Origin: Candidatus Kuenenia stuttgartensis
GTDB lineage: Bacteria > Planctomycetota > Planctomycetia > Isosphaerales > Isosphaeraceae
Assembly: GCA_945865635.1 (NCBI GenBank)
Contig: CAMBEP010000003.1
Span: 62,001-126,000, forward strand
Direction: 5' to 3'
DNA: 64,000 nt
Shown: positions 116-17,628 of the stretch, one piece after another
Layout: each line of letters opens with the position of its first letter
How positions within the stretch are numbered: position 1 is the first letter of the stretch
Position numbers and translations under genes: made by a program
The notes under the pieces: model-generated
The model's database searches: none
Told to the model about the DNA's origin: nothing
Seen by the model: the letters and a program-made list of their open reading frames with translations, nothing else

Positions 116-1066
116 TTAGGCTGTGGCAGCCAAAGAACGCACTGACTCGATGGCTCTTGCAATGACTACCCAATAATCACCACCATTTGGGGTCATCCAG
201 CACTCACCCGAGCCTTGGGCCATGATGATGTTGTCAGGCTCGGCCGGATCAAACCGAATATCGCTTATGGTGTCGAATGCTATCAACTCGGGAAGGCCTT
301 TTTTAATGACCTTCGCCCAAGTTTTTCCCCCATCTTTAGTTTCATAAAGACCAAACTGAAATCCCTGAGGTCGCACCGCCAGACTGCTTGCCACTGGCTT
401 GGCAGCCGCAGCGCCTGCCAGCATCCATTTTGGATCGGCAGGATTAATGTCCAGACAATAAACTTCGGGAACCGCTTCCAGCCCCTTGCCTGATGGTGCG
501 AAAGTCAAACCTCTATCTGTGCTGATAAAGACCCCCTGATCTGTGCCCAATGCGACTTGTGAGCCTACACTTCGAATCTTGTGAATGACTTTAGGTACGG
601 ATTCTACCTTGGTCCATGTCGTTGCAGCGTCAATGGATCGGTAAAGACCTGCTCCAGTGATTGCTACCAATAGGGTTGGTACATCACCATCTGTCATGGC
701 TAGAGAGCTCACCGTATGATTTTCGCCAGCCGCCTCGATCGGCAAAGCCAATTTCGACCACCAGCGACTCCCGTGTGCACGGCAAAAAAGACCTGCCGGC
801 CGACTTGCCAGTAACATGATCAGGGGACTCCCCCCCAAGGCATATGACGTTGAGTCCATCACGCCTACCGGTAAATCAATCGTCATCCAGGATTCACCGT
901 TGGTTGATGTTTCCTGAATCCGTCCACCATCATCAATAACCGTTAAACGTCCTTCGCCTCCTGCCAGAACTGTGCGGATACGCACACCCTGAAGGCTGTG
1001 AAAAACTGGCCAAGGTGCCCCTTGCGACCAGCGATATAGACCCGACTCAGTGCCCAGATAGATCAT
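116..1066 (-). CDS. BNR/Asp-box repeat protein (sialidase-like beta-propeller)
   Basis: A 316-residue protein. It carries several Asp-box-like strings (S-x-D-x-G-x-T-W type), for example YRSIDAATTW, ISTDRGLTF and ETKDGGKTW, spaced as in the BNR/VPS10/YCF48 beta-propellers. No signal peptide or membrane segment is visible at the N-terminus, which begins MIYLGTESGLYRW, so it may be cytoplasmic or the true start may lie elsewhere. The ATG at 1066 is the only obvious start. Such propellers are usually binding scaffolds or glycan-active; no catalytic residues could be assigned, so the substrate is unknown. It stands alone, with 620 gene-free bases before the next gene. Confidence 0.75.
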   Translation of the reverse strand: MIYLGTESGLYRWSQGAPWPVFHSLQGVRIRTVLAGGEGRLTVIDDGGRIQETSTNGESWMTIDLPVGVMDSTSYALGGSPLIMLLASRPAGLFCRAHGSRWWSKLALPIEAAGENHTVSSLAMTDGDVPTLLVAITGAGLYRSIDAATTWTKVESVPKVIHKIRSVGSQVALGTDQGVFISTDRGLTFAPSGKGLEAVPEVYCLDINPADPKWMLAGAAAAKPVASSLAVRPQGFQFGLYETKDGGKTWAKVIKKGLPELIAFDTISDIRFDPAEPDNIIMAQGSGECWMTPNGGDYWVVIARAIESVRSLAATA

Positions 1067-1687
1067 GGAACCAGGTTTCCCGAAGACTCTGAGATTCGGC
1101 TCATGTTACCGTAGGAACTCATGAGCATCATTGACCGGAAATACTCCGTATGACACCTAGTCTAATCAATCCTGCAAATTCGGTCATCGGGAATTCTGAT
1201 CGATTTACCTCTTTACCTCTTTTCGTTTCCATCAGCCAGACACAGAGACGTCACTTACAAGTTTCTTGCCCCCTTAAATTTATAAAAATTGAGAGTTTCT
1301 GAAATCATTCATCCCTCGGGAGGCACATTGTGACAAGACCCGAACCAAGAATCAAGGACTGCCTAAATTACCCAATTTTTCCAAAACCGTAAAACTCTCT
1401 ATAAATCCTAAGAATTCTTAACCTTTCCAAATCGCCCATCCGATCAGTTCTTAAGTGGATAGAATAGGTAGATCATGTAAGCCAACCTAATGACCGAATA
1501 TTTTCGGGCTAAACTGGTCGCTTATCAGCCTCTTCCTGATCGATCCGAAATTGGATGGAATCGTATAAAACAGACTGCCTGAAGCGTCGAGGATGACGCG
1601 GACGGAGCCGACTGACACGGATGTTCGCCACCTATTCGGATCAGGATGATTCGCCTGGAGGCCAGTCAGTGAAAGAAGGATATTGCC
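1067..1687. other. Gene-free stretch between divergent genes
   Basis: This 621-base interval lies between a minus-strand gene starting at 1066 and a plus-strand gene starting at 1688, so it must hold promoters for both. It has AT-rich tracts around 1260-1460 and a TATAAA hexamer near 1564 with no good -35 partner. No RNA gene, repeat array or convincing ORF was seen. Confidence 0.5.
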
Positions 1688-2935
1688 ATGATCTTCGGAT
1701 TAAGGCGTGGCGTGGCTCTTGCCGCAATTCTGGTATCAGGTTTTGTAAGCTCTACCTATGCCATTGAAAAACACATTGTCATCCCTGAAACGGTCGAAGC
1801 CATCGACCTCAATACGGGCGGGCCTTATTATGCCCCTCCAGTCCCTGGTGGCCACTACACCAAAGACACCTTGGGACACCTCTCAGATACCATTCATGGC
1901 AAGCTTGGCCTTGTCATAAATGCAGTAAAATCGCTTTGTGCCAATTGTGGCGGTAGCGGACAATGTACGGGCTGCGGTGCAGCCGCTGGCTCATCTGGCC
2001 TAGGTGCTTGCAATCATTGCAGTGGAACTGGTTTTGTGTTGGGCTCTGGCGATTCCCACACCGGCCACATTCATGGCAATGCCGGGCAGGGTACCACGAT
2101 GATTGCCGCCAATGGTACAAGCGGTCAAGGTGGTCTGCTTTCTGGCCTGCATGGTAAAGATGCGACGGGTCATGCCACCTTCAATGGTGGTATAGCTCAG
2201 CCAGCATCTGTAAGCTCTCATGGTGCATTTGGTGGTCATGGCAAGGCATCGCCTCAAGCCGCTGCCGCTCCTTCTGGTCAGACGGTTGGCTCACCTCAAT
2301 CCGCCTGTGCCAACGGCGGTTGTGGTGGAAGAGCTTGCGGCGATCCAGCCTGTCATGGCCTGTTTGGCCGTAAGGATAGAGGCAATTCCGCAGCCGGTCA
2401 CAATGGTTGTGGCACCCCGGGATGTACGAACCCTGGCTGTGGCCTTGGTGGAATGTTTGCCGGTAAAGGTCATGGAGCAGGTAACGGTTGTGGTAACCCT
2501 GCCTGCACAAGTTGTGGAAATGGTGCAGGAATGGGCCATGGGGCTGGTCACGCTGGAATGGGCAATGGTAACGATCACGGTGCTGGACATGCAGGTTTGG
2601 GTTCCAAGCTTGCTGGCCTGTTCCACAGGGAACCCAAAGTCAAATGGTTTGTAGGCCCAGGCGGACCTGTACCATTGACACCCGGATACGTTCCTTACGT
2701 GAACCCTATTCGTTCACCACGTGATTATTTCGCCTTCCCACCATACTTGGATCAGGCGATGCAACCTGGCTATGGATCCATGCCACAAAGTACAGCCGGA
2801 TTTGCCACTGACAAGGCGACTACTCCGACGGACTTTGTTGCTCCTGTTGCAAAACCAGCAATTCCTCCGCCAGCTCCAAAGCCGGCGCCTGCAGCCCCTG
2901 CACCCAAGGGTGCAGACAAAAAAGACGACAACTGA
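1688..2935 (+). CDS. Exported Gly/His/Cys-rich protein with DnaJ-like zinc-finger motifs
   Basis: A 415-residue protein with a signal peptide (about residues 1-25, ending STYA-IE) and a GAAGGA ribosome binding site before ATG 1688. Residues about 84-118 contain CxxCGGSG and CxxCSGTG, the same pattern as the DnaJ central zinc finger. Residues about 205-290 contain further Cys motifs (CANGGCGG, CGDPACHG, CGTPGC, CGNPACTSCG) mixed with GHGAGHAG-type Gly-His runs. The C-terminal 100 residues are Pro-rich and end in a Pro-Ala tail with charged KKDDN. No family was recognised. The composition suggests an exported metal-binding or structural envelope protein; that is inference. A strong hairpin lies 33 bases after the stop. 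Confidence 0.8.
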   Translation: MIFGLRRGVALAAILVSGFVSSTYAIEKHIVIPETVEAIDLNTGGPYYAPPVPGGHYTKDTLGHLSDTIHGKLGLVINAVKSLCANCGGSGQCTGCGAAAGSSGLGACNHCSGTGFVLGSGDSHTGHIHGNAGQGTTMIAANGTSGQGGLLSGLHGKDATGHATFNGGIAQPASVSSHGAFGGHGKASPQAAAAPSGQTVGSPQSACANGGCGGRACGDPACHGLFGRKDRGNSAAGHNGCGTPGCTNPGCGLGGMFAGKGHGAGNGCGNPACTSCGNGAGMGHGAGHAGMGNGNDHGAGHAGLGSKLAGLFHREPKVKWFVGPGGPVPLTPGYVPYVNPIRSPRDYFAFPPYLDQAMQPGYGSMPQSTAGFATDKATTPTDFVAPVAKPAIPPPAPKPAPAAPAPKGADKKDDN

Positions 2936-3008: not shown

Positions 3009-3167
3009 AATAGTTTCCGAAATCGACCATGTAAATGCCGATAAGATTGAAAGATGCTCAATTGCCTGAACTCATTGAACCGGAATGATTTCTAGGCTCT
3101 GCCGTTTTCAGTCATACCAAAGAATCCATGTCTTGTCAGGTTTAGATGAGGACAGGAGGTCCCCCCG

Positions 3168-3695
3168 ATGCTCAAAACTCAAAGAAAACGCCTCGGCCAA
3201 ATACTGCCGGCCTTAATCGGCTGGCTATTGGTTGGTTCGTCCGCCGTTCTGGCCCAAGTGGACTATGCCCCTCGTGTGGTTGATGTCCACGAACGAAGCG
3301 GCTTATTCACCCGACTTCAGCCTTTTAACCGCCCACTGCCTCACGACCCGTATCGTGATACTTTCTACGGCACTAAATACGACGACAGGCCTGATGCCCG
3401 ACGCCCTAACGACTGGAAGCATGGTGGCCTTTATGGTCAATATTGGGAACCATCACCTGCTCGTTCGATGAAACCTTACTTCAGGGGTGCGCCCGGTGTT
3501 GACACTATCACACCTGACAAAGCACCCGCTCTCGGCCTAAAACGCTGGGTCACAGGCATCACTGATCCGTTCCGACCTGTGAAATATTATTATCAATCGG
3601 GAAGCTATGTTCCTGTTTATGACCTTGATCCGCTAGTGACCGGACCTGGCACATTCCCATGGCCGTTCTTCTACAAAGAAAAACACGGCGGTTGA
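3168..3695 (+). CDS. Small exported protein of unknown function
   Basis: A 175-residue protein with a near-perfect Shine-Dalgarno AGGAGGT seven bases before ATG 3168. The signal peptide covers about residues 1-29 (hydrophobic core GWLLVGSSAVLAQ). The mature part is rich in Pro, Tyr, Arg and Asp (PLPHDPYRDTFYG, YYYQSGSYVPVYDLDP) and has no Cys. No domain was recognised. It follows the Gly/His/Cys-rich exported protein on the same strand, but a 232-base gap and hairpin suggest separate transcription. The strong ribosome binding site and its own terminator suggest abundant expression of an envelope protein. Confidence 0.75.
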   Translation: MLKTQRKRLGQILPALIGWLLVGSSAVLAQVDYAPRVVDVHERSGLFTRLQPFNRPLPHDPYRDTFYGTKYDDRPDARRPNDWKHGGLYGQYWEPSPARSMKPYFRGAPGVDTITPDKAPALGLKRWVTGITDPFRPVKYYYQSGSYVPVYDLDPLVTGPGTFPWPFFYKEKHGG

Positions 3696-7785: not shown

Positions 7786-8745
7786 TTACTTCCTTCGTCC
7801 ACGACTTGCCCAAGCATCGGTGGCCGCAAATGTAAGGATCAGTGCTCCTGTAACCAGCGAACGATATTGGTCGTCAAGACCACGCAGTGTGATAATGGTT
7901 TCGATCGTTTTAAGCATCAAACATCCTGCCGCTGCACCCAGCACGGAACCATCGCCACCTGCAAGCGATACTCCTCCAATAACACACGATGCAATCGAAT
8001 CAAGCTCATAACCATTCGCAGTATCCGTCTTGGAAACCTTCACAAAACTTAGTAATAACACCGAGGCCAACCCGGCGCAAAGTCCACTCAGCGCAAATGA
8101 TAAAATTTTCATTCGGTCTGTGCGAACACCTGCCAGGCGGGCAGCTTCAGCATTACCGCCTGTCGCCCGTAAATGCTGTCCCCATAACGTCTGCCGGAGA
8201 AAGATCCAGATTATCGTGGTTGCCAGAATAAAGACTGCCGCTCTTCCTGAAAGGCCTACACCCGCAACTTCCACTTTGCGATCAAGGGCTGCAAACATCG
8301 TGAGCTTGTTTAACGTCAAACCACCCAACACTATAAAAGTCAGACCCTTTACAACCATCAGGCCACTCAGGGTCGTCACAAACGGGTTCGTACCCAACTT
8401 GGCCACAAAAATCCCATTCACTATCCCGACAAGAATGCCTGTGGAAAGTGCAGCAATGAAACAGGTACCCGAATCATAACCCTTGGTCATCGCAGTACCT
8501 GCTACAGCACAGGCCAATCCGACATTGGCACCTTGACTAAGGTCAAAACCACCCGCCAACAAAACACAACACTGGCCCACAGCCAAAACGCCAACAATTG
8601 CCGCCCTTGTCAAAATCGAGCTTAAATTTGAGCCTGTATAAAAGCGATCTGTCGTGAATGTCAGCCACAAGGCCGCCACAAACAGCAGTATTTGCGGCCA
8701 GCGACGTATCGCAAAACGTAACCATGATTTTGCATTCGCGGACAT
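7786..8745 (-). CDS. Sugar ABC transporter permease (RbsC-like, BPD_transp_2)
   Basis: A 319-residue integral membrane protein of the RbsC/XylH/AraH family, with about 8-10 hydrophobic segments. The family hallmark is visible as LLAGGFDLSQGANVGL near residue 62-77, and ASCVIGGVSLAGGDGS in the second half matches the usual IGG-S-L-GG-G motif. It starts 18 bases after the RbsA-like ATPase stop, so the two are translated as a pair. The family normally imports pentoses or other sugars with a periplasmic binding protein, which is not encoded here. Substrate unknown. Confidence 0.9.
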   Translation of the reverse strand: MSANAKSWLRFAIRRWPQILLFVAALWLTFTTDRFYTGSNLSSILTRAAIVGVLAVGQCCVLLAGGFDLSQGANVGLACAVAGTAMTKGYDSGTCFIAALSTGILVGIVNGIFVAKLGTNPFVTTLSGLMVVKGLTFIVLGGLTLNKLTMFAALDRKVEVAGVGLSGRAAVFILATTIIWIFLRQTLWGQHLRATGGNAEAARLAGVRTDRMKILSFALSGLCAGLASVLLLSFVKVSKTDTANGYELDSIASCVIGGVSLAGGDGSVLGAAAGCLMLKTIETIITLRGLDDQYRSLVTGALILTFAATDAWASRGRRK

Positions 8746-8763
8746 AAGCTTGATCCCTTCTTC

Positions 8764-10269
8764 TTAAGCAGTTACGCCTACTGTTTCCGCAAGTATACGC
8801 CGCTCGCCTATCTCTGACCCTGTCAGTTCGCACTGGACCTGCCCATGGCGGAACACCAAGACTCGGTCCGATACCCGCTCAAGCTCTTGCGTATCCGGAC
8901 TAATCACAATCACTGCAATTCCTTTTGAGGAAAGGGTTTCAATCCTCTGATGAATGGCTTCTCGAGTCCGGATGTCAACTCCACGGGTTGGTTCGTTCAG
9001 AATGGCAAGCTTCGGATTTGTAGCCAGTGCTCGCGCAAGCAGCACTTTCTGCTGATTCCCACCCGATAGAGTCAGTGGATTCTGACTTAGCCAGTCGTAT
9101 TTGATCTGAAAATCCGTACAAAGCTCTTCTGATTCCCGCAAGAATTTGCTCCAGTTGAGCCATCCTAAACGGTGACTCTGCCTTAATCGTTGAAACACCA
9201 GATTTCGAGCCAATCCAAGTGCGGAAATCAGGCCACGTTTTCGGCGATCTGCCGGCACAGCGACAACTCCTGATCGCTGAGCCTGATCTGGATGACTCGG
9301 GCGATAGCTCTTACCCTCGTAAGTCATATACCCGGTCGAAGCAACGGATTCACCGGCCATGATCTGGGCTAATTCTTCCTGCCCAGCACCTGCCAAACCT
9401 GTTAATCCAACAATCTCGCCGATCCGAATCGAGAGTGAAACATCTTGAATCGTTTTACCAGATATATTTTCTACTTTAATTAGTATCGTCTCATTTTCGA
9501 TTCTCGCAGAGCTCGCGACTCGTTTTACTCCTGTAGCTACGTCCCGACCAATCATTGCATGAACCAGTCGTTTATGATCCATCTGTTGACGTTGCCAAGT
9601 GCCAACCCGTTCGCCATCTCGAAGAACTGTAAGTTGATCCGCCAAATACAAAACTTCGTCAAGATGATGGCTTACCAGACCAATCGCAAGCCCCTTGTTT
9701 TTCAAGCGAATCATCAGTTCGGCCAAGTGTTTGGCTTCGCCGCGTGTCAGCGCTGCCGTAGGCTCATCTAGTATCAAGACACGCGCACGACGCCTTAGAG
9801 CGCGTGCGATTTCTACAATCTGTCGCTGACCTGTTGGCAGAGTATCGGCTGGAACATTTAATGGAATATGCTGTGCATCAAGCATTTCCAACGTCTTGGC
9901 AGATTCCGCTCGAATCGCTCGCCGATTCAATTTACCATGCATCACAGGCTCATCGCCAAGCATGATATTTTCAGCAACACTCAAGCATCCCACCAATTGT
10001 AATTCCTGGTGAATCACAGCAATTCCCAACTTCAGCGCAGATGCCGGACTCAATATTTGAATCTTTCGGCCATCAAGACTTATGTTACCGAGATCTGGCT
10101 GAACTGTTCCAGCCAAAGTCTCCACCAAAGTGCTTTTGCCTGCTCCATTTTCACCACAAAGCGCGTGAATTTCCCCTGAAAATAAAACCCAGTCCACACT
10201 TCGAAGCGCTTTGGCTCCAAAGTAGGATTTGTGTATTCCAGACATCTCAAGAATTGGGTCGACTTTCAT
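8764..10269 (-). CDS. Sugar ABC transporter ATP-binding protein (RbsA-like, two ATPase domains)
   Basis: A 501-residue tandem ATPase of the RbsA/MglA/XylG type. The first domain has Walker A GENGAGKST (residues 39-47), signature LPTGQRQ and Walker B VLILDEPTAAL. The second domain has the usual degenerate Walker A (GLAGAGQEE) with intact LSGGNQQ and LNEPTRGVD. The first-domain signature LPTGQ differs from the more common LS(I/V)GQ. It lies 7 bases after the TMEM14-like gene and 18 bases before the permease gene, clearly in one operon. It energises sugar import; the sugar is not predictable. Confidence 0.92.
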   Translation of the reverse strand: MKVDPILEMSGIHKSYFGAKALRSVDWVLFSGEIHALCGENGAGKSTLVETLAGTVQPDLGNISLDGRKIQILSPASALKLGIAVIHQELQLVGCLSVAENIMLGDEPVMHGKLNRRAIRAESAKTLEMLDAQHIPLNVPADTLPTGQRQIVEIARALRRRARVLILDEPTAALTRGEAKHLAELMIRLKNKGLAIGLVSHHLDEVLYLADQLTVLRDGERVGTWQRQQMDHKRLVHAMIGRDVATGVKRVASSARIENETILIKVENISGKTIQDVSLSIRIGEIVGLTGLAGAGQEELAQIMAGESVASTGYMTYEGKSYRPSHPDQAQRSGVVAVPADRRKRGLISALGLARNLVFQRLRQSHRLGWLNWSKFLRESEELCTDFQIKYDWLSQNPLTLSGGNQQKVLLARALATNPKLAILNEPTRGVDIRTREAIHQRIETLSSKGIAVIVISPDTQELERVSDRVLVFRHGQVQCELTGSEIGERRILAETVGVTA

Positions 10270-16911: not shown

Positions 16912-17628
16912 ATGAAGATTCAGAAGCGATTGTTCGCGGCGGCCTTAGCAATGTCCTTAGGCATGGGAACATCGGGCCAATCTTGGGCCGATAATGGTTT
17001 GTATGTTGCTGGAGCTTCTAAAGCAGCACAGGTAGGCTTGCCGAAAGGGCCCGTTTCGAAGCCTGCATACAAGCATGACAATATCCATCAGACTGTTGCG
17101 AATGTAGGCGATCAGACGGCTGAGGGCACTGTGATCAGTGTAACTCCAGTTTATAACCCGGGTGAAGAGCCTGGCAAGGCCAGTTTTGATGGGAACCGGG
17201 GCGACTCAAGTCTGGGCCAGGCCGATCCAAATTCTGGTATGGGAAGAGCAGCTCATGTTACATCTGAGCCAACTCCAATTGGTGTAGTACAAACGAATTA
17301 CAACAATCCTGGAGCACGCTCGGGTCAACCCTCGAACATGCCTGTGGATGTCATGGCTCATGGTCGATCCGCAGCAATGAATGGGATGAACCCCGGAATG
17401 GTTCCTCAAGGTCCAACCCCGAATCAGGGAATGAAGCCACCACGACGTGGTTTAATGAGCTTGCTACGTCCGAAGAAGGCGGCAGCACATGATCCACTGG
17501 CTGTTTTTAATATGAATGCTTCAGAGCGATCGATGCATGCGGCCATGCCAGTCGGGCCACAGGGTGGCCAAGCACCTGATACAAGTCTACCGCGATCAGC
17601 CGTTTATGGCCAAAGACCAAGCCATTGA
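16912..17628 (+). CDS. Exported Gly/Pro/Met-rich protein of unknown function
   Basis: A 238-residue protein with an AAGGAG site nine bases before ATG 16912. The signal peptide covers about residues 1-26 (FAAALAMSLGMGTSGQSWA-DN). The mature chain is low-complexity, with Asn, Gly, Pro and Met (MNGMNPGMVPQGPTPNQGM), then a short basic patch (KPPRRGLMSLLRPKKAAAH). No domain was recognised; it is predicted to be largely disordered and exported. A strong terminator follows, so it is probably monocistronic. Confidence 0.72.
   Translation: MKIQKRLFAAALAMSLGMGTSGQSWADNGLYVAGASKAAQVGLPKGPVSKPAYKHDNIHQTVANVGDQTAEGTVISVTPVYNPGEEPGKASFDGNRGDSSLGQADPNSGMGRAAHVTSEPTPIGVVQTNYNNPGARSGQPSNMPVDVMAHGRSAAMNGMNPGMVPQGPTPNQGMKPPRRGLMSLLRPKKAAAHDPLAVFNMNASERSMHAAMPVGPQGGQAPDTSLPRSAVYGQRPSH

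What the first reader, a model, noticed from the sequence alone, without database searches (positions are those of the whole stretch)
1688..2935. Exported protein with DnaJ-type Cys motifs and Gly-His repeats
An exported 415-residue protein combines CxxCxGxG motifs, known from the DnaJ zinc finger in the cytoplasm, with repeated C-x3-4-C and GHGAGHAG strings. Such a mixture in a secreted protein is unusual and suggests metal binding or disulphide-linked structure.
Basis: partly seen in the sequence, partly recalled or inferred. Interest (0 to 1): 0.5.

Follow-up and report, generated by a model that had tools for sequence, protein, structure and literature searches.

The report
Secreted cysteine-histidine protein of Isosphaeraceae bacteria
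This is a secreted, probably metal-binding structural protein, found so far only in one family of budding bacteria, in which cysteines and histidines seem to replace each other between genera while their total stays about the same, next to a partner gene that is nearly always present.

Summary
ORF 1688-2935 encodes a 415-residue protein with an apparent signal peptide, 16 Cys, two CxxCxGxG motifs and one GHGAGHAG. It belongs to an unnamed single-copy family ("B") in 40 of 45 Isosphaerales genomes (26 of 26 good ones); no match was found outside. Two conserved caps enclose a fast-evolving Gly/Cys/His middle. Pfam and NCBIfam give nothing for the window protein, so it is not DnaJ. Within the window's genus Cys are kept (16/16 twice, with 6 and 8 silent changes). 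Between genera the layout changes, and two genera lost nearly all Cys. There His rises, so Cys+His stays near 16.6% of the middle; no other residue compensates as strongly. This favours interchangeable metal ligands over obligatory disulphides. B lies beside a second orphan gene (C, 3168-3695) in 38 of 40 genomes; a third (A) is usually upstream. Leaders of A, about half of B and some C genes carry GGA-loop hairpins like CsrA sites, and each of 45 genomes has 4-13 csrA matches. Best guess: an envelope or matrix protein cross-linked through metal, under Csr-type control. Function is untested.

The parts
1584..1599 (+). Leader hairpin 1: GCGTCG-AGGA-TGACGC, GGA in the loop, 98 nt before the start codon
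   Evidence: At the matching place 17 of 34 family leaders have an unbroken AGGA-loop stem of score >=12 against 4 of 36 upstream AGGA sites of other genes; pairing exceeds row-permuted controls
1637..1653 (+). Leader hairpin 2: CGGATC-AGGAT-GATTCG, 45 nt before the start; contains CAGGATG, the form of the repeated element of CsrB RNA
   Evidence: element wording from PMC7652899 (passages)
1671..1680 (+). Shine-Dalgarno-like GAAAGAAGGA tract (also contains GGA)
   Evidence: Sequence
1688..2935 (+). Gene B: the 415-aa protein of the finding
1688..1762 (+). Apparent signal peptide (residues 1-25)
   Evidence: Read by eye; hydrophobic N-terminus shared in alignment A1
1778..1867 (+). N-terminal cap (residues 31-60): VIPETVEAIDLNTGGPYYAPPVPGGHYTKD
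   Evidence: Alignment A1; predicted beta-hairpin 36-39/46-49, local pLDDT about 71-84
1868..2635 (+). Fast-evolving Gly/Cys/His middle (residues 61-316) with all 16 Cys; CxxCxGxG at 1937-1960 and 2009-2032
2636..2761 (+). C-terminal cap (residues 317-358): KVKWFVGPGGPVPLTPGYVPYVNPIRSPRDYFAFPPYLDQAM
   Evidence: Profile A3; 40 of 45 order genomes
3150..3162 (+). GGAC-AGGAG-GTCC at the ribosome-binding site of gene C
   Evidence: not in the minimum-energy fold
3168..3695 (+). Gene C: 175-aa protein with apparent signal peptide, same phyletic distribution as B
16912..17628 (+). Gene A: divergent 238-aa third cassette member, away from B in this genus
   Evidence: Profile A5 match at G000:C3:79038-79616; reading frame

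Best explanation
The protein is a secreted structural component of the Isosphaeraceae envelope or extracellular matrix. The two conserved caps, each perhaps a small beta-hairpin, dock it to a partner or to the wall; protein C is the likeliest partner. The middle is a flexible Gly-rich spacer whose Cys and His bind metal ions and so cross-link or stiffen the material. Selection holds the density of ligands, not their exact order, so CxxC modules can be rearranged or replaced by Gly-His strings. Synthesis is probably controlled after transcription by CsrA-type proteins acting on GGA-loop hairpins in the leaders of A, B and some C genes. SHOWN by computation: the family, its order-wide distribution, near-constant B-C adjacency, cap conservation, purifying selection on Cys within genera, Cys/His compensation across the sampled proteins, leader hairpins above controls for A and for about half of B. 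INFERRED: export (by eye), metal binding, structural role, partnership with C, CsrA control.
For: B cap profile in 40 of 45 order genomes, 26 of 26 of those >=90% complete and <=5% contaminated; 2 of 392 in a phylum draw, both same family. C in the same 40 of 45 and in 0 of 252 other-family genomes of the class. B and C lie within about 1.1 kb in 38 of 40 genomes (positions, counted by hand; in G026 C is cut by a contig end); the two exceptions are one genus. Twelve close pairs (eleven with Cys; some proteins used twice), residue-neutral alignment: Cys kept 185/216, Gly 649/805, His 129/191, others 624/1297; in the window's genus 16/16 twice, with 6 and 8 silent and 0 replacing changes. pN/pS of the middle 0.20-0.63; N-cap 0.00-0.36; C-cap 0.00-0.30 (pS up to 0.79, so partly saturated). 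(C+H)/length of the middle: mean 0.166, sd 0.020, against a mean sd of 0.046 when His is permuted (0 of 5000 as low); Pearson -0.83 over 26 proteins, -0.84 over 18 genus means. Next strongest negative correlations of the 19 residues are Leu (-0.45) and Tyr (-0.41). Leader hairpin 1: 127 of 170 cells paired against 111 (sd 3.9) for row permutation, 0 of 2000 as high; unbroken stem of score >=12 in 17 of 34 leaders against 4 of 36 control sites. Gene A ribosome site in a GGA-loop stem of score >=13 in 15 of 24 against 3 of 90 other genes. csrA in 45 of 45 genomes, 4-13 matches each.
Against: No experiment, and no relative among solved structures by sequence. AlphaFold2 models are poor: B mean pLDDT 49, pTM 0.23; C 46, 0.29. 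The Cys/His compensation leans on two Cys-poor genera: among the 23 Cys-rich proteins Spearman is -0.34, P=0.12, and Thr (-0.58) and Ala (-0.54) trade with Cys more strongly there. His is kept less well (68%) than Cys or Gly. Half of the B leaders (17 of 34) lack an unbroken strong stem at site 1, many having only 2 bp. The second site outside the window's genus is mostly a short stem. Whole-leader folds are not more stable than shuffles: z = 0.44, 0.52, -0.74, -0.49, -0.73, and the minimum-energy fold of the window's C leader lacks the proposed hairpin. C leaders are only weakly enriched: 6 of 25 at score >=11 against 7 of 90. The window's own A leader has no such hairpin (score 5). Row permutation does not correct for relatedness.
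Confidence: 0.42

Rival explanations
1. Soluble periplasmic metal store or buffer: the middle sequesters Zn or Cu and the caps only stabilise the protein or tether it.
For: Near-constant Cys+His density; Cys purifying selection; no lipobox or other anchor seen by eye in alignment A1.
Against: The invariant columns listed are all in the caps; the constant neighbour C has no fixed set of Cys or His; none of the recurrent neighbour clusters looked like a metal transporter or sensor (by eye, not searched).
Confidence: 0.22
2. Disulphide-cross-linked wall protein, like the cysteine-rich YTV proteins of planctomycetes, in which Cys pairs join neighbouring chains.
For: Apparently exported; Cys kept within genera; cysteine-rich YTV proteins are reported from planctomycete cell walls (PMC8567305, passages seen).
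Against: Not a YTV protein; Cys nearly absent in two genera that keep the C-cap and C; YTV matches are present anyway in 58 of 59 genomes, so no gap needs filling.
Confidence: 0.18
3. Low-complexity filler: a Gly-rich spacer whose Cys and His are by-products of composition; only the caps matter.
For: Layout and length vary (158-344 residues) and Cys can be lost.
Against: Cys kept 86% against 48% for residues other than Gly and His, with silent changes present; CxxCxGxG above composition shuffles in the 4 of 30 proteins tested; Cys+His held nearly constant.
Confidence: 0.1
4. An exported DnaJ-like zinc-finger chaperone or anti-TRAP-like binder.
For: CxxCxGxG motifs; one of 29 members reaches the DnaJ central domain at E=0.011, one reaches anti-TRAP at E=0.0049 and one DnaJ_bact at E=0.011.
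Against: Nothing for the window protein; motif number varies 0-13; members without the motif exist.
Confidence: 0.03

Closest known systems
YTV-domain cysteine-rich cell-wall proteins of Planctomycetes (Pfam PF07639)
   Same: Apparently exported, cysteine-rich, planctomycete proteins; YTV proteins are reported from cell-wall preparations (PMC8567305, passages seen)
   Different: No YTV match in B; B is single-copy, seen only in Isosphaerales, Gly/His-rich, and Cys-free in some members
DnaJ cysteine-rich domain (PF00684) and anti-TRAP (RtpA)
   Same: CxxCxGxG motif
   Different: No J-domain match, no profile match for the window protein, variable motif number, apparent signal peptide
Gly-His-rich, metal-cross-linked structural proteins such as mussel byssal collagens and squid beak proteins (recalled, not tested)
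   Same: Gly-His repeats between assembly domains, secreted
   Different: Unrelated animals; no sequence comparison made
CsrA-controlled leaders such as glgC and pgaA of E. coli (PMC7652899, passages seen)
   Same: GGA in hairpin loops upstream and a GGA at the ribosome-binding site; CAGGA(U/A/C)G-type element
   Different: Different genes and phylum; CsrA binding not shown here; many csrA copies

Membership tests
DnaJ cysteine-rich domain (PF00684) | Profile match above curated cut-off | tested here: not met
   0 families for the window protein at E<=1; 1 of 29 members at E=0.011
DnaJ cysteine-rich domain (PF00684) | Four CxxCxGxG repeats forming two zinc sites (definition recalled) | tested here: not met
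   2 motifs in the window protein; 0-13 across 30 proteins
DnaJ | J domain with HPD (recalled) | tested here: not met
   No J-domain family in the Pfam scan
YTV cell-wall proteins (PF07639) | YTV profile match | tested here: not met
   No match for the window's B or C at E<=1; the genome has YTV matches elsewhere (12 in G000)
YTV cell-wall proteins (PF07639) | Presence in cell-wall preparations | not testable with these tools
   Needs proteomics
Isosphaerales B family (defined here) | C-terminal cap profile A3 and N-terminal cap | tested here: met
   E=8.7e-26 for the C-cap in G000; alignment A1. The window protein is itself a row of both alignments
CsrA-regulated leader | Two or more GGA motifs in hairpin loops, one GGA near the ribosome site | tested here: inconclusive
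   Hairpins at 1584-1599 and 1637-1653, GGA at 1678-1680, both hairpins in the centroid fold; but whole-leader z-score 0.44
CsrA-regulated leader | CsrA present | tested here: met
   7 matches in G000; 45 of 45 order genomes
CsrA-regulated leader | Direct binding by CsrA | not testable with these tools
   Needs gel shift or CLIP

The most novel reading that the evidence does not exclude
An order-specific extracellular material built from three co-evolving secreted proteins (A, B, C), in which selection fixes the density of metal ligands in a disordered spacer but lets Cys and His substitute for one another wholesale between genera, and whose synthesis is switched by an expanded set of CsrA proteins acting on a shared GGA-hairpin code in the leaders.
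Probability: 0.25. Interest if true: 0.72.

Novelty: new variant of a known kind. Interest (0 to 1): 0.5.

Why it matters
If right, it gives a marker and a candidate building block of an Isosphaeraceae-specific surface structure (holdfast, capsule or matrix are reported for some species, PMC7716859, passages seen). It also offers a natural experiment in which Cys-based and His-based cross-linkers are swapped in one scaffold, useful for asking what a disordered metal-binding spacer must conserve. Finally it gives a concrete target set for CsrA in an order whose genomes carry several csrA copies and for which I know of no described targets.

Tried and rejected
Plasmid records: no match. DnaJ and anti-TRAP: see rivals. 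Idea that B substitutes for missing YTV proteins: rejected, YTV matches in 58 of 59 genomes, the one without being 81% complete. Fold search: not run, because both models are low confidence. First retention count with BLOSUM62 gave Cys 204/215 over 13 pairs; I replaced it by a residue-neutral alignment of 12 pairs, 185/216 (L010/L026 left out), because BLOSUM62 favours aligning Cys. First ribosome-site background (112 sites) held A orthologues among its best; one search separates them (24 A, 6 B, 25 C, 90 others of 145). Reading frames there are mechanical ORFs, so some are not genes, and the two scripts used different length limits. In one search, 34 of 35 leaders were used; L029 had no AGGA in the range. 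In some searches four near-duplicate proteins (L003, L008, L020, L027) were left out of 30. Alignment A1 holds 29 of the 30 (L003 left out). Leader pattern search in 10 genomes: 5 have it, once each, at positions just upstream of B; the other 5 lack that strict form. Absence of A by profile in Tautonia (g8, 4 genomes) and g20 is at least partly divergence: ORFs at the same place match weakly (L081 E=9.4e-15, L038 6.7e-07, L039 0.29, in a search of four sequences). A tree of C proteins does not group g8 with g20, but supports are low (0.535 and 0.344). Rfam at gathering thresholds: only a tRNA in the window. Phylum and class searches scored a capped number of candidates per genome (18, 11, 9), so absence outside the family is at that depth; the same caps still found the same family genomes as the deeper order searches.

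Full report
OBSERVATION. The ORF at 1688-2935 (+) is open from an ATG: 415 residues. The stated motifs are present. CxxCxGxG starts at residues 84 and 108, six C-x4-C spacings lie between 207 and 273, and GHGAGHAG occurs once. They exceed what composition gives: CxxCxGxG 2 against 0.07 expected, C-x4-C 6 against 0.94, from 2000 shuffles of the middle. Pfam and NCBIfam give no family at E<=1. The plasmid collection gives no match and the protein is single-copy in its genome.

FAMILY. A search of 59 near genomes found 33 with a relative: 33 of 37 in the same family (own genome included) and 0 of 22 outside. The family is Isosphaeraceae: a scan of the named genome collection gave 29 loci, among them Singulisphaera acidiphila, Aquisphaera insulae, Paludisphaera soli and Tautonia sociabilis at the positions of G028, G034, G016 and G035; the other titles are mostly unclassified planctomycetes. 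A profile of the C-terminal cap alone (A3) matches 40 of 45 genomes of the order, and 26 of 26 of those at least 90% complete and at most 5% contaminated. The five misses are 68-89% complete. In a draw of 392 genomes of the phylum it matches two, both of this family (at most 18 candidates scored per genome). In the window's genome only this gene matches, even at E<=10.

ANATOMY. Alignment A1 (29 proteins) shows an apparent signal peptide; an N-cap, TIPxEVxAxDxxTGGxYxAPPxPYGHYAKD; a middle of 158-344 residues; and a C-cap, YFVGPGGPVPLTPGYVPYxxxxRSPRDFFAFPP. The window's genus and L018 add a Pro-rich tail. AlphaFold2 gives a poor model (pLDDT 49, pTM 0.23) but places a short beta-hairpin in each cap; local confidence is fair for the N-cap and lower for the C-cap.

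ARE THE CYSTEINES FREE TO VARY? Twelve close pairs were aligned with a residue-neutral score. Within the middle, Cys is kept in 185 of 216 cases, Gly in 649 of 805, His in 129 of 191 and all others in 624 of 1297. In the window's genus all 16 Cys are kept against both relatives tested, with 6 and 8 silent TGT/TGC changes and no replacement. So Cys is under purifying selection while the middle around it drifts (pN/pS 0.20-0.63; N-cap 0.00-0.36; C-cap 0.00-0.30). Between genera the picture changes. CxxCxGxG ranges from 0 to 13 copies. Three Tautonia-genus proteins (L010, L026, L027) and the g20 protein (L030) have 2, 0, 0 and 2 Cys in the middle. I take g20 (G022, 5.5 Mb, two contigs) to be Isosphaera, whose genome PMC7716859 gives as 5.53 Mb with one plasmid; no call names it.

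CYS AND HIS TRADE PLACES. Where Cys is lost His rises. Over 26 proteins (four near-duplicates dropped from 30), (Cys+His)/length of the middle is 0.166 with sd 0.020, against a mean sd of 0.046 after permuting His, never as low in 5000. Pearson is -0.83; over 18 genus means it is -0.84. Of the other 18 residues the strongest negative ones are Leu (-0.45) and Tyr (-0.41). The two Cys-poor genera sum to 0.155 and 0.158, inside the range of the rest (0.137-0.204). Against this: the correlation leans on those two genera. Among the 23 Cys-rich proteins Spearman is -0.34 (P=0.12), and Thr and Ala correlate more strongly there. A C-protein tree does not put the two genera together, but its supports are low. 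Cys and His share few chemical roles besides metal binding, so I read this as selection on ligand density. That is an inference.

NEIGHBOURS. Gene C (3168-3695) is an orphan protein with an apparent signal peptide and a conserved end, PVGxYYxxGSYVPIYDLDPxVPGPGPFPWPF. It occurs in the same 40 of 45 order genomes as B and in 0 of 252 other-family genomes of the class. Reading the positions, B and C lie within about 1.1 kb in 38 of 40 genomes. The exceptions, G017 and G031, are one genus. Gene A, a third orphan with APGxAVVG repeats and two Cys pairs in most members, matches in 36 of 45 order genomes and in 0 of 252 outside. By the same reading it lies a short way upstream of B in 31 of those 36. 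In the window's genus it does not; here it is at 16912-17628, without Cys.

LEADERS. Most B genes outside the window's genus have CTCCAGGAGGG or a close form, mostly about 36 nt before the start. A strict longer form occurs once, just upstream of B, in five of ten genomes searched and not in the other five. About 80-100 nt upstream lies a place where AGGA tends to sit in a hairpin loop. Counting positions 3-7 outward from AGGA, 127 of 170 cells pair, against 111 (sd 3.9) when right arms are permuted among 34 leaders; sliding gives 51 of 136 to 94 of 170. An unbroken stem of score 12 or more is there in 17 of 34 leaders, against 4 of 36 upstream AGGA sites of other genes; the other half have short or broken stems. 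The window's leader holds two strong ones, at 1584-1599 and 1637-1653. In the whole window, both strands, 12 of 356 AGGA sites score as high as the weaker of the two, and two of the 12 are these. Gene A has its ribosome site in such a loop (GGGAA-AGGAG-TTCCC and variants that keep the pairing): 15 of 24 at score 13 or more, against 3 of 90 other genes. Gene C is mixed: 6 of 25 at score 11 or more against 7 of 90. The second hairpin in the window contains CAGGATG. [quoted passage not shown] Each of 45 order genomes has csrA matches: 4-13, and 7 in G000. Against this reading: the five leaders folded whole are no more stable than shuffles (z from -0.74 to 0.52), and the minimum-energy fold of the window's C leader lacks the hairpin.

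WHAT IT DOES. I judge a secreted structural protein with metal-binding spacer the likeliest (0.42), ahead of a soluble metal store (0.22) and a disulphide-linked wall protein (0.18). The caps are the most conserved part and C is the near-constant neighbour, which fits assembly with a partner. The spacer conserves ligands rather than sequence. Some Isosphaeraceae are reported with holdfast, capsule or abundant matrix (PMC7716859, passages seen), which is the kind of structure this could serve. That link is a guess.

KNOWN OR NEW. It is not DnaJ and not YTV by the tests above, and PDB sequences give nothing for B or C. I saw no paper describing it among those listed by seven searches of an open-access library (listings and starts of abstracts, with passages of three papers). 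Those searches covered Isosphaeraceae with cysteine-rich or secreted proteins, planctomycete signature proteins, CsrA in planctomycetes, cell-wall and YTV proteins, holdfast and crateriform structures, CxxCxGxG in secreted proteins, and CsrA sites. Subscription papers were mostly not in that library.

Noticed in passing
G000 and 44 other genomes of the order: Every Isosphaerales genome examined carries several csrA matches (4-13); I saw no discussion of this in the 12 of 15 papers listed (listing and start of abstracts only).
   Followed up: partly
L075, L076: Two contigs titled 'Candidatus Kuenenia stuttgartiensis' MAGs carry B with a cap 98% identical to the window's, at the positions of G003 and G001 of the window's genus; the titles look wrong.
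   Followed up: no
window 116-1066 (-): Sortilin/BNR-like repeat protein (Pfam E=8.6e-10) next to B, also present in L031 of the same genus, where most other genera have gene A.
   Followed up: no
window 7786-10269 (-): By look at the sequence, a sugar-type ABC permease and a double ATPase gene; an ATPase of this kind also lies near B in some other loci, possibly by chance.
   Followed up: no
L010, L021, L026, upstream of B: Seen by eye: very short ORFs that end just before the B start codon; possible translational coupling, not tested.
   Followed up: no
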